From the NCBI GenBank assembly GCA_013140465.1, contig JABFST010000132.1, positions 1-30,590 on the forward strand: DNA of 30,590 nt, given 5' to 3'. Position numbers and translations under genes: made by a program. Shown here piece after piece: positions 7,051-20,900 of this stretch (position 1 is its first letter; each line of letters begins with the position of its first letter). The DNA is from Methylococcaceae bacterium. GTDB lineage: Bacteria; Pseudomonadota; Gammaproteobacteria; Methylococcales; Methylomonadaceae. Below the pieces are notes generated by a model that worked only from the letters and a program-made list of their open reading frames with translations, searched no databases and was not told where the DNA came from.

Positions 7051-7231
7051 GATTGTTCCCTTTGGAATGAAAGGCTGTTGAAAATAATCAAGCAGCATTT
7101 ATGCCAAGCGTTGGGATGGCGGGCGGGACGCGCATTTACGCGTATTCAGCAAGGTTTATGCTGTTGTATGTAATACATCGCAGGGTGCTTAGTGGTGCGT
7201 GCTGTCGTAAAGCTGACAAAAGTGAATAAAC

Positions 7232-7507
7232 GGAGTGCAACGGCTTCAGACGTTGCCGGGTTGGCGTTAAAACCGAGAAAGCAAGGTCTAAAGCCCTTGC
7301 ACTCCGCTAAACCCAACGCCAGCAAATAAGCTGGAGTGCAACGGCTTCAGACGTTGCCGGGTTAGCGTTAAAACCGAGCAAGCAAGGTCTAAAGCCCTTG
7401 CACTCCCCAGAACCCAACGCCAGCAACTAAACCGGAGTGCAACGGCTTCAGACGTTGCCGTGTAAGCGTTAAAACCGAGCAAGCAAGGTCTAAAGCCCTT
7501 GCACTCC
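7232..7507. repeat. BIME-like array: three 101-bp tandem units of paired hairpins
   Basis: Units start at 7232, 7333 and 7434 (period 101 bp). Each has a forward hairpin, GGAGT then stem GCAACG/CGTTGC (7232-7257, 7333-7358, 7434-7459), and an inverted partner with stem GCAAGG/CCTTGC ending in ACTCC (7281-7305, 7382-7406, 7483-7507). The two stem types differ by a compensatory C-G to G-C change while the loops are near-identical, which points to selection on structure. The arrangement resembles REP pairs (BIMEs) mobilised by RAYT transposases; no RAYT gene is in the window. The rest of the 7051-7613 gap shows nothing else recognisable. Confidence 0.8.
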
Positions 7508-7613
7508 GCTAAACCCAAAGCAGCAACTAGACCCCGTCGGCAAACCCTTTTCAGGAAATCTACTACACTTGTTAGTAACCAATCTATTTCCTAAACCCGA
7601 CACCCTCATCACA

Positions 7614-8564
7614 ATGGAACAACTCACCGACCTCAAAGCCATACTCCACTCCAAACGCGCCAATATTTACTACCTAGAAAAATGCCGGGTCATGCAAAAA
7701 GACGGGCGCGTCCTCTACCTCACCGAAGCCAAAGACGAAAATTACTATTGGAACATCCCCATCGCAAACACCACCGTCATCCTGCTGGGTACAGGCACGT
7801 CCATCACCCAAGCCGCAATGCGCATGTTAGCCAGTGCCGGGGTGTTGGTCGGATTTTGCGGCGGCGGTGGTACGCCGTTATTCTCAGGCAGCGAAATCGA
7901 ATGGCTCACCCCACAAAGCGAATACCGCCCCACCGACTATGTGCAAGGCTGGCTAAGTTTTTGGTTTGACGAAAGCAAACGCCTAGCCGTAGCCAAAACC
8001 TTCCAACAACAACGCACCAGCTATTTGCAGCGAATTTGGGCAAAAGACCGCGACCTAAAAGCCGAAGGCTTTTATGCCGACGACCCCGCCCTCAGCAACG
8101 CCCTGTCAGCCTATAGCGACCAACTGCCAAGCGCACAAAAAGTCGGCGACCTGCTACAGCGCGAGGCCCTGCTCACCAAACAACTCTACCGCTATGCCGC
8201 CAAAGCCACCCAATACGGCAACTTTGTCAGGGAACGCGAAGCCACCGACCTTGCCAACGGCTTTTTAAACCACGGCAACTACCTAGCCTACGGACTTGCC
8301 GCCACCACACTGTGGGTGTTGGGCATCCCCCACGGATTTGCCGTCATGCACGGCAAAACTAGGCGCGGTGCGCTGGTGTTTGATGTCGCCGACCTAGTCA
8401 AAGATGCCATCGTACTGCCGTGGGCGTTTGTCTGCGCCAAAGAAAAAACCACCGAACAAGAGTTCCGCCAACAAATCCTACAAAAATTTACCGAACATAA
8501 AGCTTTGGATTTTATGTTCGAACAGGTTAAGCAAGCGGCCTTAAACGGCGACGACCAAACGTAA
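7614..8564 (+). CDS. cas1: CRISPR-associated integrase Cas1, type I-F
   Basis: The metal-dependent integrase that inserts new spacers into the CRISPR array, 316 residues from the ATG at 7614. This start gives MEQLTDLKAILHSKRANIYYLEKCRV, which aligns with the N-terminus of type I-F Cas1; a TTG 45 bp upstream would only add unrelated residues. Subtype I-F hallmarks include YYWNIPIANTTVILLGTGTSITQAAMR and VGFCGGGGTPLFSGSEIEWLTPQSEYRPTDY. The active-site region HGKTRRGALVFDVADLVKD supplies the conserved histidine and two aspartates, and an upstream glutamate lies in the NFVREREATD region. It looks intact. In typical I-F loci cas2-3 follows directly; here 689 bp with vapBC intervene. Confidence 0.96.
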   Translation: MEQLTDLKAILHSKRANIYYLEKCRVMQKDGRVLYLTEAKDENYYWNIPIANTTVILLGTGTSITQAAMRMLASAGVLVGFCGGGGTPLFSGSEIEWLTPQSEYRPTDYVQGWLSFWFDESKRLAVAKTFQQQRTSYLQRIWAKDRDLKAEGFYADDPALSNALSAYSDQLPSAQKVGDLLQREALLTKQLYRYAAKATQYGNFVREREATDLANGFLNHGNYLAYGLAATTLWVLGIPHGFAVMHGKTRRGALVFDVADLVKDAIVLPWAFVCAKEKTTEQEFRQQILQKFTEHKALDFMFEQVKQAALNGDDQT

Positions 8565-8588: not shown

Positions 8589-8960
8589 TCAGTGTCCAAC
8601 AAGCCAATGGTTGCCAACGGACTGGGCAACCGCCGCCAAACGCTTATCGCGTGTCCAAAGCCAAGTATTGGGCGTTAAGCTGACGGATGCCAACAGATGC
8701 AAATCAACCCAACCTATCCCTTTACCCATCAGTTGTTGAGCCTGCAAATAATGCAACACTTCATCATGACCCGCTTCAATCACCTGTGGCAAACATTGCC
8801 AAAGGCCCAGCAAAGCTTCACGGTTACGCAAGTGACCACAAGCCAGTTCGCCAATAACCATGGGATGAATGCCCACTTGTCCCTGTTCCAACAAGCGCAC
8901 CAAGGCTTCATCTTTGGCACGCAAATGATCTACCCATACCGAGGTATCCACCAAAACCAT
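8589..8960 (-). CDS. vapC: VapC-type PIN-domain toxin
   Basis: A 123-residue PIN-domain ribonuclease of the VapC type, expected to cleave RNA when released from its antitoxin. The acidic active-site residues are all visible: Asp5 (LVDTSVW), Glu38 (IGELACG), Asp86 (GWVDLHLLAS) and Asp105 (TRDKRLAAVA). The gene lies 5 bp downstream of its antitoxin gene on the same strand and converges with cas1, whose stop is only 24 bp away. The pair sits inside the cas operon, opposite to the cas genes, and is most likely a later insertion. Which RNA it cuts cannot be told from sequence. Confidence 0.92.
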   Translation of the reverse strand: MVLVDTSVWVDHLRAKDEALVRLLEQGQVGIHPMVIGELACGHLRNREALLGLWQCLPQVIEAGHDEVLHYLQAQQLMGKGIGWVDLHLLASVSLTPNTWLWTRDKRLAAVAQSVGNHWLVGH

Positions 8961-8965
8961 AAGGG

Positions 8966-9166
8966 CTACCCGACCAAATCCGATTGCCGTCTTGGCATGG
9001 CTGCCAGTTCTGGTTCGCTACCGCCCAATATCGCCAAACGGCGGGCACTTTCGCGTTCAATCAACGCCTTCAAGCCTTCCCTTAACAACGCCGTTTTTTC
9101 GTTGATACCCGTCAACTCAACTGCCTTTGCATATAACTCATTATCTATATTCAATGTCGTACGCAT
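8966..9166 (-). CDS. vapB: VapB-type antitoxin
   Basis: A 66-residue antitoxin. The N-terminal MRTTLNIDNELYAKAVELTGINEKTALLREGLKALIERE is a ribbon-helix-helix type DNA-binding domain of the kind found in VapB proteins; the C-terminal part, rich in Arg, Glu and Pro, should wrap VapC. A strong Shine-Dalgarno AGGAGG precedes the ATG. The intergenic region upstream (9167-9253) is shared with cas2-3 transcribed in the other direction, so VapB binding to its own operator might also affect cas2-3 expression. Confidence 0.88.
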   Translation of the reverse strand: MRTTLNIDNELYAKAVELTGINEKTALLREGLKALIERESARRLAILGGSEPELAAMPRRQSDLVG

Positions 9167-9253: not shown

Positions 9254-9823
9254 ATGATGGTCACATTCATCAGCCAATGCCAAAAAAAAGCCCTTAGCCG
9301 CACCCGCCGCGTATTAGATGCCTTCGCCAACCGCATCGGCGACAACACCTGGCAAACCGTCATCACCGAAGACGGCCTGATCGCCGTTAAAACCCTGTTA
9401 CGCAAAACAGCCACCAAAAACACGGCGGTGGCTTGCCATTGGCAGCGGTCAAGAAGCCGGAGTGAGTTGGTTTGGGTGGTGGGCAATCGGCGGTGTTTTA
9501 ATGCGGAGGGGATTGTTCCAGTGAATAGCACGCGCAAAAATTTGGCCAATAGCCATTGGGAAAATGATTGGCAATATTTACCCGTGATTAAGGCGTTGAT
9601 CGCTATAGCTGCTTTATTGCACGATTGGGGCAAAGCTACCGCGTTGTTTCAAAAGAAATTGAATACAGGGACTCTGCTGGGCGACCCGTTGCGGCATGAG
9701 TGGATTTCTTGCCTGTTGTTGAATGCGTTGGTGCAACAAGCAGGAAATTCAGATGAAGGTTGGTTACAGTTATTGGTTGGTTACAGTTATTGGTTAGTGG
9801 CGAACTCAATGAACAGGCATTAA
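9254..9823 (+). CDS. cas3: Cas2-3 fusion, N-terminal piece (frameshifted)
   Basis: This frame encodes the N-terminal part of the type I-F Cas2-3 fusion: the Cas2 domain (about residues 1-95, beginning MMVTFISQCQKKALSRTRRVLDAF) and the start of the Cas3 HD nuclease, with the HD motif LLHDWGKA at residues 121-128 and LRHEW at 146-150. After Trp170-Leu-Gln-Leu-Leu-Val the frame is shifted by a 17-bp tandem duplication (9761-9794), and 14 foreign residues lead to a stop at 9821-9823. The product would be 189 residues instead of about 1116. AGGA lies 10 bp before the ATG. The Cas2 part, needed with Cas1 for spacer uptake, is intact; the HD nuclease is incomplete. Confidence 0.9.
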   Translation: MMVTFISQCQKKALSRTRRVLDAFANRIGDNTWQTVITEDGLIAVKTLLRKTATKNTAVACHWQRSRSRSELVWVVGNRRCFNAEGIVPVNSTRKNLANSHWENDWQYLPVIKALIAIAALLHDWGKATALFQKKLNTGTLLGDPLRHEWISCLLLNALVQQAGNSDEGWLQLLVGYSYWLVANSMNRH

Positions 9824-12621
9824 CACAAACCGTTATCACCAACAACAGCAAGCCTTTGGACAATTTACCGCCTATTGCCCAACTGGTTGGTTGGCTAATC
9901 TTAAGCCATCATCGCTTGCCTTACCGAGCCGAACCCAAGCTGGATGCCAATCAAGGCAAAGAAAGTATCGATAAACTTTTAAAAGGTATTACCGCAACTT
10001 GGGGCTATCAGAATAAAAACGACGATGAAAAACGCTTGAAAGCCTGTTTTGAATTTCCAGAAGGTTTGCTTAGCCAATCTAAGCCGTGGTTAAAACAACT
10101 GCAAAAATGGTCAGCCAAACTTTGGCAAACCCAGCCACAAATCCAAAACTTATTAGATAACGGCGGCTACCGTGTGGTGTTGCACCACGCTCGTTTGAGC
10201 ATCATGCTGGGCGACCATTATTACTCTTCTTGCGTTGCCGATCCCCATTGGCAAAGCAGCATTTCCTTGCTTGCCAATACCGATAAACACCGCAAACCTA
10301 AGCAGAAACTAGACGAACATTTGGTACGCGTAAGCGAACAAGCCTTAAAAATTAGCCAAACCTTATCACGTTTCAGTACCGATATGGCTGTGGCTTATGA
10401 CATCAAAAACTTAAAGCAAAAAAGCCCTAAAGGGTACGAATGGCAAGACAAAGCGGTTGAAAAAATCAGCCAATTTAAAATCCAGACTCAAAACCAAGGC
10501 GGTAAAAATCACGGCTGGTTTATCGTCAATATGGCAAGTACAGGTTGTGGCAAAACCATTGCCAACGCCAAAATCATGCGGGCATTATCAGGCGACGGTG
10601 ACAGCCTACGCTTTATTCTGGCCTTAGGATTGCGTACCTTAACCTTGCAAACAGGGGATGAATATAAACACCGTATCGGTTTAAGCCCCGATGAGTTGGC
10701 GGTACTGATTGGTTCGGCAGCGGTCAAAGAACTGCATGAACAATCCAAGCAAAATAACGAAGAGCTGCCGTCTTATGCCGAATCAGGATCGGAATCGTTG
10801 GAAACTTTATTGGCGGAAGAGCTGGATTACGACGACTCGCCTACCGCTGATTTCCTTGATGTGCTGTTTCCCAAACATGACCGCATACTGGCTGATAAAA
10901 ACAAAGCCTTTTTATACAAGCCCGTTTTGGCTTGCACCATAGACCACATTATCGCCGCCACCGAAACCCTGCGTGGCGGCAAATATATGTTGCCTTGCTT
11001 ACGGCTATTGTCATCGGATTTAGTGATTGATGAAGTGGATGATTTTGATGGCAAAGACTTAATAGCCATTGGTAGGCTTATTCATTTGGCGGGCATGTTA
11101 GGCCGTAAAGTGATGATCTCATCCGCCACCATCCCGCCCGCCGTGGCAGAAGGATTTTTTAACGCCTATCAAGCGGGTTGGACATTGCACAGCCATTTCA
11201 GGGACGCGCTACCCCTAGTGGCTTGCGCGTGGGTGGATGAGTTTGGCAGCCAAGTCCAAGCACTTGATTATCACGATACGGCAACCCGCTGCCAAAATTA
11301 CCGCACAGTCCATCAAGCCTTTATCGCCAAGCGAGTCATCCACCTTCAAAAACAACCCGTTAAACGCAAAGCGATGATTGTCCGCTGTGATGAAGCCTTG
11401 GCGGCAAAAAAAGATTTTCAGTCTGTGTATTTTGAAAGCATCAAACAAACGGCTATGGGCTTGCATCAACACCACCACACCGTCGATAAAACCACAGGCA
11501 AACGGGTGTCGTTTGGCGTTATTCGTGTTGCCAATATTCCGCCGTGTGTCGAACTGAGCCAATTCCTTTTGCAAGCTGACTGGGGCGCAACAGCTCCTAA
11601 AATCATGGCCTACCATAGCCGCCAAGTGCTGTTATTGCGCCACCAGCAAGAAGCGCATTTGGGCGCGGTGTTAAAACGCAAAGAACAAAACGGCGCAATG
11701 CCCGACGCTTTCAATCATGCCATTGTTCGGGCGCATTTACAAAACACCACCGCCCAAGACGTGCTGTTCATCGTGGTGGCGACCCCTGTCGAAGAGGTTG
11801 GCAGAGATCATGATTTTGATTGGGCCATCATCGAACCGTCGTCCTACCGTTCCATCATCCAACTTGCCGGACGGGTGCGCCGCCATCGGGGCGGCGTGAT
11901 TGAACACGCCAACATCGCTATTATGCAATACAACCTCCGAGCCTTGCGCCATATCGCTACGCTCAAAGATTACACACCTGCAAACTGGCAACGCAACGGC
12001 ATACCCGTCTTTTATAGGCCGGGTTACGAGGTGAAATCATTAAAACTGGTTACGCCTGATGTTTGCCAACTGCTGGATGAAGCCGCCTTGAATGCCGCTA
12101 TCAACGCCATTCCCCGCATCCAACAACCCGACATCATCCGCCCTAACCAGCAGTTGGCAGATTTGGAGCATCAAGCCCTAAACAACAGCCTGACCCACTA
12201 CCAAAGCAAAGGCCCGCAAGGCTTGCAAGCGTGGTTAAGTGAATGCTGGTGGCTAACAGCCGTGCCGCAACAAATCAACCGCTTCCGCGATAGCAGCCAA
12301 GACACCACGCTGTATTTGCTTTGGCAAGACGGCAAACCAGTGTTTTGCGACAGAACCGAACGCGGTGATTTTGTGCCTTTTGGGGATAGGGCCAACATCA
12401 AGCCCGCGCCGCCCTTATCAGCAGTTGAACAAAGCCGATTATGGTTGACCAGGGATTATGAAGCTGCACTGCGCGAACAATTGCAGAACACCGAGGAAGA
12501 AGGCGAAGACGACGCGTTAATGATGAAAAAATCAAAACGCTATGGGGAAATCACCTTTCGTGAGGAAAATCGGGGCTGGGTTTATTCCGACCAGTTCGGC
12601 TTATTTCTGCGTAAAGGGTAG
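9760..12621 (+). CDS. cas3: Cas2-3 fusion, HD remainder and Cas3 helicase (frameshifted)
   Basis: The continuation of cas2-3 in another frame. Without one 17-bp copy, 9254-12621 would be a single frame of about 1116 residues, near the usual size for I-F Cas2-3. This piece holds the rest of the HD domain (SHHRLP at residues 49-54) and a complete superfamily 2 helicase: Walker A STGCGKT around residue 260, DEVD box LVIDEVDDFDG around 420, motif III SATIPP around 452, and motif VI IIQLAGRVRRHRGG around 700. It would unwind and degrade DNA marked by the Csy complex. The only start near the 5' end is a TTG at 9760 without a well-placed Shine-Dalgarno sequence, so independent translation is doubtful; the first internal ATG lies far inside. 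Confidence 0.92.
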   Translation: MVTVIGWLQLLVSGELNEQALTQTVITNNSKPLDNLPPIAQLVGWLILSHHRLPYRAEPKLDANQGKESIDKLLKGITATWGYQNKNDDEKRLKACFEFPEGLLSQSKPWLKQLQKWSAKLWQTQPQIQNLLDNGGYRVVLHHARLSIMLGDHYYSSCVADPHWQSSISLLANTDKHRKPKQKLDEHLVRVSEQALKISQTLSRFSTDMAVAYDIKNLKQKSPKGYEWQDKAVEKISQFKIQTQNQGGKNHGWFIVNMASTGCGKTIANAKIMRALSGDGDSLRFILALGLRTLTLQTGDEYKHRIGLSPDELAVLIGSAAVKELHEQSKQNNEELPSYAESGSESLETLLAEELDYDDSPTADFLDVLFPKHDRILADKNKAFLYKPVLACTIDHIIAATETLRGGKYMLPCLRLLSSDLVIDEVDDFDGKDLIAIGRLIHLAGMLGRKVMISSATIPPAVAEGFFNAYQAGWTLHSHFRDALPLVACAWVDEFGSQVQALDYHDTATRCQNYRTVHQAFIAKRVIHLQKQPVKRKAMIVRCDEALAAKKDFQSVYFESIKQTAMGLHQHHHTVDKTTGKRVSFGVIRVANIPPCVELSQFLLQADWGATAPKIMAYHSRQVLLLRHQQEAHLGAVLKRKEQNGAMPDAFNHAIVRAHLQNTTAQDVLFIVVATPVEEVGRDHDFDWAIIEPSSYRSIIQLAGRVRRHRGGVIEHANIAIMQYNLRALRHIATLKDYTPANWQRNGIPVFYRPGYEVKSLKLVTPDVCQLLDEAALNAAINAIPRIQQPDIIRPNQQLADLEHQALNNSLTHYQSKGPQGLQAWLSECWWLTAVPQQINRFRDSSQDTTLYLLWQDGKPVFCDRTERGDFVPFGDRANIKPAPPLSAVEQSRLWLTRDYEAALREQLQNTEEEGEDDALMMKKSKRYGEITFREENRGWVYSDQFGLFLRKG
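9761..9794 (+). repeat. 17-bp tandem duplication that breaks cas2-3
   Basis: TGGTTACAGTTATTGGT occurs twice head to tail (9761-9777 and 9778-9794). Seventeen bases is not a multiple of three, so the second copy shifts the frame. Removing one copy restores DEGWLQLLVSGELNEQAL and a continuous reading frame to 12621. Confidence 0.95.
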
Positions 12622-12698: not shown

Positions 12699-12917
12699 AT
12701 CCAACGCACTTAAATAAGCTGCCTGTGCGGCAGAGAAATCAATTGCTAACTTGTTGAGTACTATTTTCTAAGCTGTCTTTTCGACAGACCTAAAATTGTA
12801 CTCTAAAACTTTAGGGTGTCACTTAAATTTTATTTTAACTTTTTAAGTACTATGGTGTTGTTTATTGAGAATCCATCATGTAAACTTCATCCATCAGTCA
12901 CCAAGTGAAATTCTAAA

Positions 12918-13766
12918 ATGAGCAAAAAATTGAAACCTATTGTCGCCGCCATCTATGACTTTGACGGGACATTATCACCACGCAACATGCAAGAATATGA
13001 ATTTATTCCGAAACTTGGCATGTCAGCTAAAGATTTTTGGAGTGAATCCAAAAAATTAGCGGAAGAACAAAAAGCAGATGCCATCCTCGCGTATATGAAA
13101 TTAATGCTGGATAAAGCCAAAGCAAACAACATCAAGATCAATAAAAAAGAGTTTTCAGAATATGGCTCAGCCGTGGAGCTTTTCAATGGTGTAGAGCAAT
13201 GGTTTTCCATTATTAACGCTTATGCAAAATCACAAGGCATCCAAATTGAACACTTCATTATTTCATCTGGGTTAAGGGAAATAATTGAAAGTACTTCCAT
13301 TGCCAAAAACTTTAAAAAAATTTACGCATCAGGATTTATGTATGACCAACATGATGTTGCGGTTTGGCCTGCACTAGCCATCAATTACACAACTAAAACC
13401 CAATACATATTTCGCATCAATAAGGGGAGTTTGGATGAATCAGACAACAGTCTTATTAACCAATATGTACCTGATGAAGACAGGCTAATCCCGTTTGCCA
13501 ATATGATTTTTATCGGTGACGGTGAAACGGATATTCCCTGTATGCGTTTGGTTAAAGACAAAGGCGGACATTCAATTGCTGTTTATAGGCCGCGAATGAA
13601 AGAAGCAAAAGAAAAAGCAAAACAATTAGTTAATGAACATCGCGCCCATGCAGCCATTAAAGCTGATTACAAAGAAAACGGCGAGATGTTCAAGCTAGTC
13701 TGTTCAATTATCGACAAAATTAAAGCAAACGAAAACTTCAAACAGGTATTACGAGGCAATACATGA
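12918..13766 (+). CDS. HAD-family phosphatase-like protein inside the cas operon
   Basis: A 282-residue member of the haloacid dehalogenase superfamily, resembling phosphoserine phosphatase-like hydrolases. Motif I is YDFDGT with nucleophile Asp14 and acid/base Asp16; motif II is IISSG at 114-118; Lys160 or Lys169 can serve as motif III; motif IV is IGDGETD at 199-205. All catalytic residues are present, so it is probably an active phosphatase on an unknown substrate. It is not a core type I-F gene. Its ATG follows a 296-bp AT-rich gap and its stop overlaps the csy1 start (ATGA at 13763-13766), so csy1-4 would be transcribed and translated downstream of it. Its base composition is clearly more AT-rich than the cas genes, suggesting a separate origin. 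Confidence 0.85.
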   Translation: MSKKLKPIVAAIYDFDGTLSPRNMQEYEFIPKLGMSAKDFWSESKKLAEEQKADAILAYMKLMLDKAKANNIKINKKEFSEYGSAVELFNGVEQWFSIINAYAKSQGIQIEHFIISSGLREIIESTSIAKNFKKIYASGFMYDQHDVAVWPALAINYTTKTQYIFRINKGSLDESDNSLINQYVPDEDRLIPFANMIFIGDGETDIPCMRLVKDKGGHSIAVYRPRMKEAKEKAKQLVNEHRAHAAIKADYKENGEMFKLVCSIIDKIKANENFKQVLRGNT

Positions 13767-15010
13767 ATAACGTAAGTTCTTTCTTAAATGACCGCAAAGC
13801 CGCATGGCTAAAAGCCAAGCTCAAACCAACCCAAAGCCAAGAGGAACAAGCCAAACTACACATAGAAGCCAACGAGAGGTTTGCGTTGGCAAATTGGTTG
13901 CCCGATGCCGCCAGACGCGCACCGCAGCTAACAATGGTCAGCCATCCAGGCAAATTTAGCCATCCCAGCGCCAAAACTTCGCCAGTGATTGCTCATAATC
14001 TACAAGCCAACGATGGCTATTTACGGACGGGTAACGTTAATTATGAATTGGATGTGTTTGGTAATGCAGCGGCGATGGATGTCTATAAATTCCTCTGCCT
14101 GACACTGTCTGACGGCAAGACAGTATTGGCACATTTGGAAACGGATAGCCCCGAGATTACCAAGTTGTTTACCTTGCCAACGGCAAGCTATGAAGATTTA
14201 AAGCAAGGTCTCATCAGCATCAAACAATTGGATACCACAAGCAAAACCGACCATTTGGTCAAACAAGTCTATTTTCCTGTCGATAACGATTACCACCTAC
14301 TTTCCTTGCTAACCCCGTCGGGATTACTGACGCAAGTTAAAACCCGCATTGACCGTATGCGATTCTCTGACGAAACCAAACAGGCCAAAGAATGCCGTAA
14401 GAAAAAAGAACACCACGAGACTGGTTTTGACGATGTGTTAAATTTAACAGTCACTGCCTTTGGTGGCACACAGCCGCAAAACGTCAGTGTCTTAAATAGC
14501 CAAAATGCTGGACGCGCTTATTTACTGGCGAGCTTCCCACCCAGTTTTAAACAACGGCAAATCCGCTTGCCTAGCCATGATTTCTTCCGCAACAGCTTAC
14601 GCGCGAAAACCTTTAAAGATGCTTATTTGCCACTCGATAAGCTCATCCACACCGATGTCAACAATGTTGCTGTCCGGCAGGGCATACAAAATTGCCTGAA
14701 ATTCATCATCGACCAAGCATTGCAGCGTGTATTTAGCATACGCGCTTACGCTGTGGGTTGGTCACAAACCGAGCATTACCAAAGCTTACCAGCGGCGCAA
14801 CGGATTTGGCTGGACGATGCCTATCTGGAACAACGCGAACAGCAAGACGACTGGCTAGACACCGTGGTGGCGGATTTTGCCCGCTGGATGCTGGATACCT
14901 ACGAATACTTATTTAAAGACAGTTATAGCAACTTAAGCGACCACGAATTGCGCGAAGTGCGCGGCCTCGTAAAACAAGCCGTCGCCGCCGACCAGGAGTT
15001 TTTCAAATGA
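13763..15010 (+). CDS. csy1: Csy1 (Cas8f), large subunit of type I-F effector
   Basis: A 415-residue Csy1/Cas8f protein. In the type I-F surveillance complex this subunit pairs with Csy2 at the 5' handle of the crRNA and reads the PAM. I recognise it from its place in the conserved csy1-2-3-4 order and from segments such as RFALANWLPDAARRAPQLTMVSHPGKFSHPSAK and YLLASFPPSFKQRQIRLPSHDFFRNSL, typical of the family. No catalytic site is expected. The start overlaps the HAD stop and the stop overlaps the csy2 start, each by 4 bp, indicating translational coupling. It looks complete. Confidence 0.94.
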   Translation: MNNVSSFLNDRKAAWLKAKLKPTQSQEEQAKLHIEANERFALANWLPDAARRAPQLTMVSHPGKFSHPSAKTSPVIAHNLQANDGYLRTGNVNYELDVFGNAAAMDVYKFLCLTLSDGKTVLAHLETDSPEITKLFTLPTASYEDLKQGLISIKQLDTTSKTDHLVKQVYFPVDNDYHLLSLLTPSGLLTQVKTRIDRMRFSDETKQAKECRKKKEHHETGFDDVLNLTVTAFGGTQPQNVSVLNSQNAGRAYLLASFPPSFKQRQIRLPSHDFFRNSLRAKTFKDAYLPLDKLIHTDVNNVAVRQGIQNCLKFIIDQALQRVFSIRAYAVGWSQTEHYQSLPAAQRIWLDDAYLEQREQQDDWLDTVVADFARWMLDTYEYLFKDSYSNLSDHELREVRGLVKQAVAADQEFFK

Positions 15011-15927
15011 GCATCAGACAATTGTTATTACTGCCCAAAATTAGCATCCACAATGCCAATGCCATGAGCAGCCCCTACACCATCGGTTTTCCGGCAATGA
15101 CCGCATGGTTAGGAGCAATTCATGCCCTGCAACGGCATTTGCACCAGCACGGCTTTCCCGAAGTGCAATTAGCCGGAGTTGCCGTTGTGTGCCATCAGTT
15201 CGATTTGCAGACTTACCAAGGCCCCAACGATTTCGTCCAGTCCATTATCGGTACAGCCAATCCGTTGGATAAAGACGGCAGCCGTCCAGCGTTTATTGAA
15301 GAAGCCCGCTGCCATCTGCAAGTGTCGTTGTTGGTGGAATATTTCGGTGTGGACAGCGATGACCGCGAACTGTTGGTGGCAACCGCTAACCAACAATTGC
15401 AGCGCATGAAAATAGCGGGTGGCGATGTCTTGTCCGCAAATGCGCTTGAGGTCTTAGCTGTGGATGAAGACGACGATAACGACCTCAGAAAAGTCCTTAA
15501 AAAACTCATGCTGGGTTATGTCCTAATCGAGCGTCGCGATTTGATGCAACAAACCATGCACGAAGAAAACAAAGACGCGCTGGACGCTTTGCTGGATCAC
15601 CTTAAGCTCATGCACCGCGCCCAGCAAGATGACGATGGCAAAGTGACTTGGACCAGCAAACGTAAAACGGCGGGGTGGCTGGTGCCCATAGCCACAGGTT
15701 TTCAGGGCATATCCGAACTGGGTACAGCCAAAAACCAACGCGATCCCAACGTCCCGCACCGCTTCGCTGAAAGCGTGGTCACGCTTGGCGAATTTGTCAT
15801 GCCTTACCGCATTAACAACCTAAACGACATGCTCTGGCAAACCCATGTCGATCTGGAACAAAACTTATACCTTTGCCAAACCCTTTCAACCGCAACTTAT
15901 TCAACCTCAAACATCTTTGGAGCATAA
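15007..15927 (+). CDS. csy2: Csy2 (Cas5f), type I-F effector subunit
   Basis: A 306-residue Csy2/Cas5f protein, a RAMP-fold subunit that caps the 5' end of the crRNA with Csy1. The N-terminus SIRQLLLLPKISIHNANAMSSPYTIGFPAMTAWLGAIHALQR is characteristic of the family, where the NANA...G.P..TA.LG..HAL pattern is conserved. Starts in an ATGA overlap with csy1; ends 4 bp before csy3, whose Shine-Dalgarno sequence lies within the last codons of csy2. Confidence 0.95.
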   Translation: MSIRQLLLLPKISIHNANAMSSPYTIGFPAMTAWLGAIHALQRHLHQHGFPEVQLAGVAVVCHQFDLQTYQGPNDFVQSIIGTANPLDKDGSRPAFIEEARCHLQVSLLVEYFGVDSDDRELLVATANQQLQRMKIAGGDVLSANALEVLAVDEDDDNDLRKVLKKLMLGYVLIERRDLMQQTMHEENKDALDALLDHLKLMHRAQQDDDGKVTWTSKRKTAGWLVPIATGFQGISELGTAKNQRDPNVPHRFAESVVTLGEFVMPYRINNLNDMLWQTHVDLEQNLYLCQTLSTATYSTSNIFGA

Positions 15928-15931
15928 ACTC

Positions 15932-17035
15932 ATGGCAACTAAAAACGACGCAACTGTATTGGCTTTTGAAAAAAAACTTGTGCCTTCTGACGGCTATTTA
16001 TACGGCACAACTTGGAACAAAGGTCGAGAAGCTGACGCTATTCGCCGCAACCCCGAACGGCTTAAAAAATATCAAGAAGAACAGCAACAAAAGCCGAAAG
16101 AAGAGAGAACACCGTTGTATCAATCTACGCCGCTTAAATTGAACGAAAAATCCGTGCGTGGCACTATTTCTAACCGACTAAAACCGACCATTCAAAACGA
16201 TCCGCTAAAACTCAACGCCGAAGTTGAAAAACCCAACTTACAAAAAGTTGATGCCTGTGCCTTGGGCGAACACCAAGACACCTTGCGCTTATCGTTCACT
16301 TTGAAAGTGTTGGGTGGCATCGACAAACCTTCCGCCAGCAACGGCCCCCTATTTAACGAACGCTACCCCGTTGCTGCACTAGCCTATGTCGAACAAACAG
16401 GCTTTACCGAATTGGCAAAACGTTACGCCATCAACATAGCCAATGGTCGCTACCTCTGGCGCAACCGCGTTGGCGCAGAAAAAATTGAAGTCGTTGTCAG
16501 CATTGGAGACAGCCAGCCGTTGATCTTCGACGGCAAACAATTTTCGCTACGCGACTTCAATACCGATAGCCCCGCTTTGCAAACCTTAGCCGACCAAATC
16601 GCCTTGGCACTCAGTGGTAAACTGCCTTATTTGCTCATCACCGTAGAAGCCTACGTCCTGATTGGTAACGCCCAAGAAGTATATCCCAGTGAAGAACTAG
16701 TATTGGACAAAGGCAAAGGCGATAAAAGCAAAATATTGTACGAAGTGAACGGTGTTGCCGCTTTGCACTCACAAAAAATTGGCAACGCTTTGCGTACCAT
16801 TGACACTTGGTATCCCAGCTTTGCCGATGTCCAAATTGGCCCCATCGCTATCGAACCCTATGGTTCAGTCACCAACCTTGGCAAAGCCTTCCGAAATCCA
16901 AAAGAAAAAGCCGACTTTTATACTTTGTTCGACCGTTTTGCCTTAGGCGAAAAACTCACCGACCCCAACCAAGAACATTACGTTATGGCGGTGTTGGTGC
17001 GCGGGGGCGTATTTGGACAAAGCGGCAAGGAATAG
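15932..17035 (+). CDS. csy3: Csy3 (Cas7f), backbone subunit of type I-F effector
   Basis: A 367-residue Csy3/Cas7f protein. Six copies normally form the helical backbone that holds the crRNA spacer. The ATG at 15932 was chosen: it gives MATKNDATVLAFEKKLVPSDGYLYGTTW, resembling family members, and is preceded by GGAG 10 bp upstream. A longer frame from 15845 would overlap csy2 extensively. Segments such as GRYLWRNRVGAEKIEV and YEVNGVAALHSQKIGNALRTIDTWYP are conserved in the family. It is somewhat longer than the Pseudomonas protein. Confidence 0.95.
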   Translation: MATKNDATVLAFEKKLVPSDGYLYGTTWNKGREADAIRRNPERLKKYQEEQQQKPKEERTPLYQSTPLKLNEKSVRGTISNRLKPTIQNDPLKLNAEVEKPNLQKVDACALGEHQDTLRLSFTLKVLGGIDKPSASNGPLFNERYPVAALAYVEQTGFTELAKRYAINIANGRYLWRNRVGAEKIEVVVSIGDSQPLIFDGKQFSLRDFNTDSPALQTLADQIALALSGKLPYLLITVEAYVLIGNAQEVYPSEELVLDKGKGDKSKILYEVNGVAALHSQKIGNALRTIDTWYPSFADVQIGPIAIEPYGSVTNLGKAFRNPKEKADFYTLFDRFALGEKLTDPNQEHYVMAVLVRGGVFGQSGKE

Positions 17036-17906: not shown

Positions 17907-20900
17907 GTTCACTGCCGCACAGGCAGCTTAGAAAGGGAGCGGGTTATAAACCTGTTTTTTGGTCTTGTTCACTGCCGCACAGGCAGCTTAGAAACCACAA
18001 ATTCAAGAAAGCGGATTTTCTGGAAAGGTTCACTGCCGCACAGGCAGCTTAGAAACAACACTATTTCTTGCCACTCACCAATTTTTATGTTCACTGCCGC
18101 ACAGGCAGCTTAGAAATGTCGAACCTCATTTATAGAATCCTGAATTGTGTTCACTGCCGCACAGGCAGCTTAGAAATCCGCCATTGCATGTAACTGGAAC
18201 ACATTCTAGTTCACTGCCGCACAGGCAGCTTAGAAACTGATGAGGGATTTTGAGAATTGGGTACACAAAGTTCACTGCCGCACAGGCAGCTTAGAAAGAA
18301 TGTGAAAATAGGCGTGGTTTGAATATGAGGTTCACTGCCGCACAGGCAGCTTAGAAAATCAACTGTTCGTACTGAACCAACCGGACAAGGTTCACTGCCG
18401 CACAGGCAGCTTAGAAATCCCTACAACGTCTCGTTTTTCAAATGTAATCGTTCACTGCCGCACAGGCAGCTTAGAAAATAGTGGAAAGAATCAGGAAAGC
18501 CAAGAAAAAGTTCACTGCCGCACAGGCAGCTTAGAAATTAAACTAGTTTCTTCAATAGCTACAGATACCGTTCACTGCCGCACAGGCAGCTTAGAAAAAC
18601 AGGGGCAGATTAAACCCCAGCTGAAACATGTTCACTGCCGCACAGGCAGCTTAGAAATGAATTAGTTTTGAGAAACGATTTATTGTTTAGTTCACTGCCG
18701 CACAGGCAGCTTAGAAATGTGTTGACCAGTCCGTATCCTGCACTGCTCCGTTCACTGCCGCACAGGCAGCTTAGAAAGGACAAAGTGCCGCCATAGGGAC
18801 ATGATGAGTGTTCACTGCCGCACAGGCAGCTTAGAAAAGCCTGGGATAAGGTTTGGGCCGCACCGGCTAGTTCACTGCCGCACAGGCAGCTTAGAAAAAA
18901 ATCATGGATAACACTTCGTCCTGAGAAACGTTCACTGCCGCACAGGCAGCTTAGAAAATAACAGTCCTGCATTTCTAGGTAGGTTACACGTTCACTGCCG
19001 CACAGGCAGCTTAGAAAATTGACGACCTCCAAACAGAGTTTGGCGTGCTGTTCACTGCCGCACAGGCAGCTTAGAAAATAAAGAAGGACCTGCACAGGCT
19101 AACTTTAGGGTTCACTGCCGCACAGGCAGCTTAGAAAATCCTCATGCGTTCAGGGCTTTGTACGGGACGCGTTCACTGCCGCACAGGCAGCTTAGAAAAA
19201 TAAAAATACGCGCTTGTGCCGTAAAACTCAGTTCACTGCCGCACAGGCAGCTTAGAAATTTAATATCAGGTCTTGTATTTCTTTCATGTTGTTCACTGCC
19301 GCACAGGCAGCTTAGAAATTATAACTAGCACCTCCCTTGCTAATTTCAGGGTTCACTGCCGCACAGGCAGCTTAGAAAATATGCCAGCGTAGACACCAAT
19401 ACCTGCCCTGGTTCACTGCCGCACAGGCAGCTTAGAAATTTAATTCAAGGGAAAGTATCGGTAAATTTGTGTTCACTGCCGCACAGGCAGCTTAGAAATA
19501 ACAGGCTTAATATCGCATTAACCATCACCAGTTCACTGCCGCACAGGCAGCTTAGAAAGGATTACCACACCCATACGCGATCAATTTGTGGTTCACTGCC
19601 GCACAGGCAGCTTAGAAACAGTATGCTCATCGCCGCCCAGTGCCGCCGTGGTTCACTGCCGCACAGGCAGCTTAGAAAAGTTATTCAGGGTGGACATGCC
19701 CCGCGTAGATGTTCACTGCCGCACAGGCAGCTTAGAAAAGTTCGAGGAAAAAAAGAAGGCCAAGCTTGACGTTCACTGCCGCACAGGCAGCTTAGAAAAG
19801 TTCGAGGAAAAAAAGAAGGCCAAGCTTGACGTTCACTGCCGCACAGGCAGCTTAGAAATATTAATTTCATACTTTCATCATTCATTTTACGTTCACTGCC
19901 GCACAGGCAGCTTAGAAATTAATTGAGCTACTTTCTTTTGGCTTGCTTCCGTTCACTGCCGCACAGGCAGCTTAGAAATCAGTCCACACGGCCTTGCCGT
20001 TTTGTCTAAAGTTCACTGCCGCACAGGCAGCTTAGAAAGAAAAAAGAGAAAACTATGACAGACAAACAAAGTTCACTGCCGCACAGGCAGCTTAGAAATA
20101 TTCTTAATTACTAAAAAAGCCCCAGCAATAGTTCACTGCCGCACAGGCAGCTTAGAAAAGATTTAATAGACTTATGCCAGAGCTTGGTGAGTTCACTGCC
20201 GCACAGGCAGCTTAGAAAGCTTAAAAACGAATCATCCGTAGTTGCTGGAAGTTCACTGCCGCACAGGCAGCTTAGAAAATAACCGGAGAAAAACGAAAAA
20301 TAGGCGCAGCGTTCACTGCCGCACAGGCAGCTTAGAAACGGCGGCTATTTTGGTGATGCCTAAGGTGGGCAGTTCACTGCCGCACAGGCAGCTTAGAAAA
20401 TGTGCTTTTATTTGGGTTATTTCAATCTGTTGTTCACTGCCGCACAGGCAGCTTAGAAAGATTTATTGTATTTTGTACACATATATTTTGTGTTCACTGC
20501 CGCACAGGCAGCTTAGAAAGTAATGTGATCTTTAGCCCGCTCCGCCAAAAAGTTCACTGCCGCACAGGCAGCTTAGAAATCACTCCAAAAAAAGACCTTG
20601 CTGAACTACATGTTCACTGCCGCACAGGCAGCTTAGAAAAGCGTGCCGTTTACAACCGCCCAACGCTGGAAGTTCACTGCCGCACAGGCAGCTTAGAAAA
20701 TTTGCTGCCACTTTTGATAAATAGCCGTGCGGTTCACTGCCGCACAGGCAGCTTAGAAACCGTGCAATTTTTCTTGTTACCAGACATCGCGGTTCACTGC
20801 CGCACAGGCAGCTTAGAAATTGCGCTTTTTTCTCATGCGTGTAGCCTATCTAGTTCACTGCCGCACAGGCAGCTTAGAAACAAATAATAATTTTAAACGG

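What the first reader, a model, noticed from the sequence alone, without database searches (positions are those of the whole stretch)
9254..12621. Cas2-3 is broken by a 17-bp tandem duplication inside the HD nuclease domain
TGGTTACAGTTATTGGT is repeated head to tail at 9761-9794. Everything before is in one frame, everything after in another; deleting one copy gives a continuous 1116-residue Cas2-3. All other cas genes are intact and the array has 82 spacers. As read, the cell would make a 189-residue Cas2 domain with a partial HD, and no full helicase-nuclease. Short tandem duplications are reversible by slippage, so this could be an on/off switch for interference, a way to keep Cas2 for adaptation while silencing Cas3, or recent decay.
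Basis: seen in the sequence. Interest (0 to 1): 0.85.

Follow-up and report, generated by a model that had tools for sequence, protein, structure and literature searches.

The report
Recently broken CRISPR Cas2-3 nuclease gene
In the CRISPR locus of a bacterium that is probably a methane-eater, the gene for the DNA-cutting enzyme carries a 17-base stutter that splits it in two, most likely a fresh loss-of-function mutation, while the target-finding genes and a small RNA-type regulator beside them look intact.

Summary
Observation confirmed. An exact 17-bp tandem duplication (9758-9795) splits a type I-F cas2-3 gene in a MAG, probably a methanotroph, into two frames: 9254-9823 (Cas2 plus the start of HD) and 9760-12621 (the rest). 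Intact relatives exist: a 1116-aa protein 98% identical, and a Methylovulum locus with one 1114-codon frame. None of 15 relatives aligned at the site has the extra copy. Neither piece shows decay (dN/dS 0.06 and 0.09, like csy genes). So the break is very recent, or an assembly error; no reads were available.

A switch finds no support: no repeat at this site in those relatives, and cas2-3 frame breaks (5 of 98 relatives) are not denser per kilobase than csy breaks. Keeping Cas2 for adaptation is unlikely, not excluded.

It is of the known CreA/regulatory kind; 19 of 34 such gaps have one. In Acinetobacter such a guide needed the Csy complex, not Cas3, so the surviving effector may keep a regulatory job. 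Mostly ordinary.

The parts
7569..8564 (+). cas1 (type I-F), intact
   Evidence: TIGR03637 488 bits, PF01867
9254..9823 (+). cas2-3 piece A: Cas2 domain, linker and first part of the HD domain (HDWGK at residue 123), 189 aa; about the last 15 residues have no match in Cas2-3
   Evidence: PF21384 E 9.3e-40 at residues 1-79; TIGR02562 model positions 1-175; matches 8flj_M 2-175
9758..9795 (+). exact 17-bp tandem duplication, 2.24 copies, that shifts the frame
   Evidence: absent in the 15 relatives aligned
9760..12621 (+). cas2-3 piece B: rest of HD (SHHRLP at residue 49 of the piece), helicase domains and C-terminal part, 953 codons without a stop
   Evidence: TIGR02562 707 bits at model 196-1026, PF22590; matches 8flj_M 204-1071
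12711..12738 (-). second repeat-like element of a mini-CRISPR (5 mismatches to the array repeat)
   Evidence: hairpin -8.0 kcal/mol against -8.6 for the array repeat
12739..12764 (-). 26-nt spacer-like sequence of the mini-CRISPR
12765..12792 (-). first, more degenerate repeat-like element
   Evidence: the stretch 12757-12792 folds at -9.3 kcal/mol
12828..12855 (-). likely target of the mini-CRISPR guide: CC (12855-12854) then 26 nt of which 18 match, the first 8 all
   Evidence: best of 3704 CC sites on both strands of the window; next best by total 14 of 26 (ranking by seed)
12918..13766 (+). HAD-family phosphatase gene overlapping the csy1 start
   Evidence: PF12710 E 2.1e-12; no match in the 150 relatives searched
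13763..15010 (+). csy1
   Evidence: TIGR02564, PF09611
15007..15927 (+). csy2
   Evidence: TIGR02565, PF09614
15932..17035 (+). csy3, 367 aa, 29 residues longer than in L032
   Evidence: TIGR02566 391 bits; alignment with L032
17039..17680 (+). cas6f (csy4)
   Evidence: TIGR02563, PF09618
17907..22863 (+). CRISPR array, 83 repeats, 82 spacers

Best explanation
A recent slippage-type 17-bp tandem duplication inactivated cas2-3 in this lineage, or in the part of the population that the MAG represents. Shown: the frame is split inside the HD nuclease domain, so no single frame encodes a whole nuclease-helicase. Inferred: piece A makes a Cas2 plus partial HD protein, piece B makes little or nothing, interference is lost and efficient spacer acquisition with it. 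Csy proteins and crRNAs should still form a DNA-binding complex. A mini-CRISPR beside the broken gene probably still guides that complex to a site upstream of the HAD-csy genes, so the effector may keep a regulatory function that does not need Cas3.
For: Duplication and frames. Intact relatives: P0001, 1116 aa, 98% identical to piece B, and L032, one frame of 1114 codons. None of 15 relatives aligned at the site has the extra copy. Recent: window-specific residue changes against P0001, polarised with P0002, are 0 in A and 6 in B, P0001-specific 1 and 5, 3 in B unassigned; dN/dS against L032 is 0.063 (A) and 0.088 (B), csy1-3 0.058-0.107. HD split: piece A matches 8flj (PaCas2/3) up to residue 175, piece B from 204. 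Mini-CRISPR and target. [quoted passage not shown]
Against: No reads, so an assembly error is not excluded. The same truncated product was not found in another contig (397 proteins matched, 120 listed, highest identity 92% over 72% of the query). The genome is 83% complete in 507 contigs, so a second Cas3 cannot be fully excluded; a search with piece B gave only one weak hit (35% identity over about 100 residues) outside this contig. The recency data fit an error just as well. Transcription or action of the mini-CRISPR is not shown; the promoter-like site before it is no rarer than chance.
Confidence: 0.63

Rival explanations
1. Assembly or sequencing error: the organism has one copy and an intact Cas2-3.
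For: Single MAG, no reads, read type unknown, 507 contigs; the relatives aligned are intact at the site; no decay in either piece; the truncated product is seen nowhere else.
Against: Short-read assemblers tend to collapse rather than create tandem copies (recalled). Such events are rare in the part of the assembly looked at: in 174 kb only one other duplication of period 10 or more inside a frame of at least 100 codons, with a period of 12 that keeps the frame. One residue just after the duplication also differs from P0001 and L032, which a mere copying error of the assembler would not explain, though it may be an unrelated polymorphism.
Confidence: 0.22
2. A reversible on/off switch (contingency locus) for interference through gain and loss of the 17-bp unit.
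For: A two-copy direct repeat can revert by slippage (recalled); the gene is otherwise kept without decay. One other broken relative, L021, has a 4-bp tandem unit (CAAG) at one of its two lesions, so short tandem duplications may recur as a cause of breaks.
Against: The repeat is absent at this site in the 15 relatives aligned; cas2-3 breaks per kilobase in relatives are like those of csy genes; the tandem scan at the lesions of L030, L091 and L094 found none and at L088 only a 3-bp unit.
Confidence: 0.06
3. A selected split: the 189-aa Cas2 protein supports spacer acquisition while Cas3 is silenced.
For: Piece A holds the whole Cas2 domain and linker. In the PaCas1-2/3 structure the Cas1 integration sites lie about 80 and 100 angstrom from the HD domain (PMC12259127, passage). 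Cas2-HD pieces of 143-310 aa also occur elsewhere, some on long contigs.
Against: [quoted passage not shown] The low dN/dS of piece B says that Cas3 was under selection until very recently.
Confidence: 0.05
4. Piece B is still made by an internal start or by ribosomal frameshifting, giving some active enzyme.
For: Piece B is open from 9760 and has TTG codons at 9760, 9790 and 9856 ahead of the SHHRLP motif.
Against: Its first ATG is codon 149, at 10204, beyond SHHRLP; the HDWGK part lies only in piece A; by eye no slippery heptamer lies in the overlap of the frames.
Confidence: 0.04

Closest known systems
Type I-F Cas2-3 (Cas3f), e.g. Pseudomonas aeruginosa 5b7i/8flj
   Same: Domain order and sequence; the two pieces cover TIGR02562 positions 1-175 and 196-1026 of 1110
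   Different: Encoded in two frames; no intact product
Frame-broken cas2-3 in other I-F loci (L021, L030, L088, L091, L094)
   Same: cas2-3 in more than one frame in otherwise recognisable loci; L021 has a 4-bp tandem unit at one lesion
   Different: Other positions; no 17-bp duplication; L094 also has a broken cas1 and L021 a large internal deletion, so some may be poor assemblies
CreTA / CreA mini-CRISPR in the cas3-csy1 gap of Acinetobacter I-F loci (PMC10097628)
   Same: Two repeat-like elements, short spacer-like sequence, CC-flanked partial match nearby, same gene gap, opposite in direction to what lies under the target
   Different: No toxin RNA identified here; a HAD gene and csy1 follow the target; the spacer is its own
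Regulatory mini-arrays of type I systems (Shmakov 2023, NAR; not held; content recalled, reference entry seen)
   Same: Standalone repeats with a spacer that partly matches a cas-gene promoter (recalled)
   Different: Not compared directly

Membership tests
Type I-F CRISPR-Cas locus | cas1, cas2-3 fusion, csy1-3, cas6f and an array with 28-nt repeats | tested here: met
   (cas2-3 present but split)
Functional Cas2-3 | one continuous frame covering Cas2, HD, helicase and C-terminal domains | tested here: not met
Functional Cas2-3 | nuclease-helicase activity in vivo | not testable with these tools
   needs an interference assay
Phase-variable contingency locus | repeat tract at the site conserved or variable among relatives | tested here: not met
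   absent in the 15 relatives aligned
Phase-variable contingency locus | mixture of on and off alleles in one population | not testable with these tools
   no reads
Regulatory mini-CRISPR / CreA | two degenerate repeats flanking a short spacer, hairpins kept | tested here: met
Regulatory mini-CRISPR / CreA | spacer partly matches a PAM-flanked site nearby | tested here: met
Regulatory mini-CRISPR / CreA | transcribed, processed and loaded into the effector | not testable with these tools
   promoter-like site 12822-12795 on the minus strand, 1 found, 0.6 expected in shuffles
CreTA | a toxic RNA (CreT) under the target site | not tested
   no assay and no search for one

The most novel reading that the evidence does not exclude
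Cas3 is the expendable half: mini-CRISPR regulation, which needs Csy but not Cas3, holds the Csy effector in place after the nuclease is lost, so that the locus turns into a binding-only, self-regulating RNA-guided repressor carrying 82 guides.
Probability: 0.12. Interest if true: 0.6.

Novelty: new member of a known kind. Interest (0 to 1): 0.3.

Why it matters
If real, it is a natural, very recent Cas3-null beside intact effector genes, array and regulatory guide. That is a clean case to ask whether guide-based regulation or addiction keeps effector genes after interference is gone, and how long such loci last. The survey of the same gap in relatives (19 of 34 with a repeat pair, each of the 19 with a partly matching CC-flanked site) suggests that such regulation is common in this group of I-F loci.

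Tried and rejected
Self-targeting as the cause: the array was compared with the held own genome in three overlapping stretches that together cover it. Outside this contig the best hit is 24 bases at 92%, E 0.3 and 0.04; the others are weaker. No sign of autoimmunity, in an 83% complete genome.

Viral targets: no exact match in viral contigs for pieces of the first three spacers, 3 of 82, and no match of the whole array in the phage collection at E 0.01. Uninformative.

A frame break in csy3, suspected from the 396-aa ORF at 15845, was rejected: reading from 15932 the gene is open, with an in-frame insertion against L032.

Enrichment of breaks in cas2-3: 5 of 98 unique relatives (7 partial set aside) against cas1 1 of 86, csy1 2 of 67, csy2 1 of 62, csy3 0 of 57, cas6f 0 of 51 (partial set aside: 6, 15, 4, 4, 2). 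Scaled by gene length cas2-3 gives about 1.5 and the csy genes about 1.3 breaks per 100 kb (my arithmetic). The csy breaks were not inspected and may be partly alignment effects.

A link between mini-CRISPR and broken cas2-3: of the six broken copies the window and L088 have a repeat pair with a target, L021 one repeat-like element; L030 has no csy1 in its locus, and L091 and L094 have short gaps. Too few to test.

Catalytic residues of the HD domain: the papers looked at for them (listing, passages of PMC13381967) gave no list that I could use, so the motif names HD and SHHRLP rest on recall.

Papers: of PMC10097628 part 1 of 8 and passages; passages only of PMC12259127, PMC5059440, PMC9458426, PMC12737573, PMC10651486, PMC11035748 and PMC13381967; Shmakov 2023 is not held. 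For a cas3 duplication or switch in print I saw only the listings (20, 15 and 12 rows) and an empty answer; no title pointed to one, and this is no proof of absence.

Full report
What was checked. Two genomes of its genus hold cas2-3 loci that are identical over the 300 bases compared to public Methylococcaceae and Crenothrix MAG contigs (L004 and L042, L005 and L037), and the nearest named locus is from a Methylovulum sp. MAG, L032, so it is probably a methanotroph. The 17-bp duplication is there, exact, a run of 38 bases at period 17 (9758-9795). The frame from 9254 ends at 9823; the rest is open in another frame from 9760 to 12621.

Intact relatives. P0001, a protein of 1116 aa from a 12.3-kb public contig, is 98% identical to piece B; piece A matches its residues 1-174 and piece B residues 169-1116. 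L032 has one frame of 1114 codons. In a DNA alignment of the site with 15 of the relatives none has the extra unit. Of 104 loci other than the window's own two records in which both pieces found a match, 102 have the best matches in one frame; L088 and L094 do not. This test sees only the best match of each piece: L021, L030 and L091 pass it but are broken further on. Four of the loci repeat another by sequence.

Is it recent? Against P0001, polarised with P0002, 168 columns of piece A hold 0 window-specific and 1 P0001-specific change; 935 columns of piece B hold 6 and 5, with 3 unassigned. The last 21 residues of A and first 18 of B were left out; just after the duplication the window has one more residue that differs from P0001 and L032. 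dN/dS against L032 is 0.063 and 0.088 for the pieces (9758-9813 left out), 0.144 cas1, 0.107 csy1, 0.094 csy2, 0.058 csy3 and 0.162 cas6f. There is no sign of decay, so the break is very young, or is an error.

Is it an error? Reads are not at hand. In 173,928 bases of this genome (window without the array, plus 20 contig stretches chosen by number) there were 31 rows of exact tandem duplications of period 7-120; inside frames of at least 100 codons only two have a period of 10 or more, this one and one of 12. What was looked at is about 5% of the assembly. The truncated product was not found elsewhere: 397 proteins matched piece A; of the 120 listed the highest identity is 92%, over 72% of the query.

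What the pieces are. Piece A holds the Cas2 domain (PF21384) and the start of the HD domain, with HDWGK at residue 123; piece B holds SHHRLP, the helicase domains and the C-terminal part. Neither has a whole HD domain. That these two motifs are catalytic is recalled.

A switch, or a split for adaptation? Frame breaks were called in cas2-3 of 5 of 98 unique relatives, and in 3 of 237 csy gene copies (csy1 2 of 67, csy2 1 of 62, csy3 0 of 57, cas6f 0 of 51; partial copies set aside). Scaled by length the rates are about equal (my arithmetic). At the lesions scanned for tandem units there was none in L030, L091 and L094, a 3-bp one in L088 and a 4-bp one in L021, so a short tandem duplication may be the cause in L021 too. 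Of 23 short Cas2-HD proteins inspected, some on contigs of over 100 kb, several run out of homology before their end, as a frame break would give, and several end while still matching, as a contig end would. On adaptation, PMC12259127 (passages) puts the HD domain far from the Cas1 sites, while Vorontsova 2015 (title only) says I-F acquisition needs all interference components.

The neighbour that matters. The gap after cas2-3 holds a mini-CRISPR on the minus strand: repeat-like 12792-12765, spacer-like 12764-12739, repeat-like 12738-12711. Both repeat-likes keep the hairpin. The spacer-like sequence matches, after a CC, 18 of 26 bases at 12853-12828 with the first 8 perfect, the best of 3704 CC sites of the window; the next best by total has 14 of 26. 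Of 34 cas2-3 to csy1 gaps of 100-2500 bp (window and 33 relatives after dropping 4 duplicate loci; 50 of 86 loci have gaps under 100 bp and were not searched) 19 have a detectable repeat pair, 15 on the minus and 4 on the plus strand, and each of the 19 has a CC-flanked partial match within the gap that none of 300 shuffled spacers reached. The spacers mostly differ from locus to locus together with their targets; a few, such as L017 and L022, are alike. 15 of the 34 gaps gave no pair. This is the CreA kind described for Acinetobacter I-F (PMC10097628). There CreA lost its antitoxic function without the Csy complex, but not without Cas1 or Cas3. So here loss of Cas3 need not disturb that regulation, whereas loss of Csy would. 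That is inference; no transcript is shown.

Verdict. The finding is real in the sequence and most likely a young loss-of-function mutation of a known kind. The switch reading has no support here. The regulatory mini-CRISPR beside it is the more useful observation, and it too is a member of a known kind.

Noticed in passing
8589-9166: Antisense PIN/VapC-like gene (8589-8960; PF01850; NCBIfam VapC model at 27.8 bits, below its cut-off of 80) with a 66-aa ORF upstream (8966-9166, VapB-like by position only, not scanned) sits between cas1 and cas2-3; in L032 cas1 and cas2-3 overlap directly.
   Followed up: partly
12918-13766: HAD-family phosphatase gene between the mini-CRISPR target and csy1, overlapping csy1; no match in the 150 relatives searched; relatives at 95% (unnamed contig) and 75% (Methylovulum psychrotolerans) exist.
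   Followed up: partly
12711-12855: Mini-CRISPR with a partly matching CC-flanked target; similar elements in 18 other I-F loci.
   Followed up: yes
15932-17035: csy3 is 29 residues longer than in L032, by an insertion near the N-terminus rich in charged residues.
   Followed up: no
19711-19830: Spacers 31 and 32 are identical, a duplicated repeat-spacer unit.
   Followed up: no
7225-7526: Three tandem copies of a 101-bp unit upstream of cas1.
   Followed up: no
L088, L091, L094, L021, L030: cas2-3 frame-broken in other I-F loci, among them Mitsuokella multacida DSM 20544, Nitrosomonas sp. Nm34 and Snodgrassella sp. CFCC 13594; L021 shows a 4-bp tandem unit at one lesion.
   Followed up: partly
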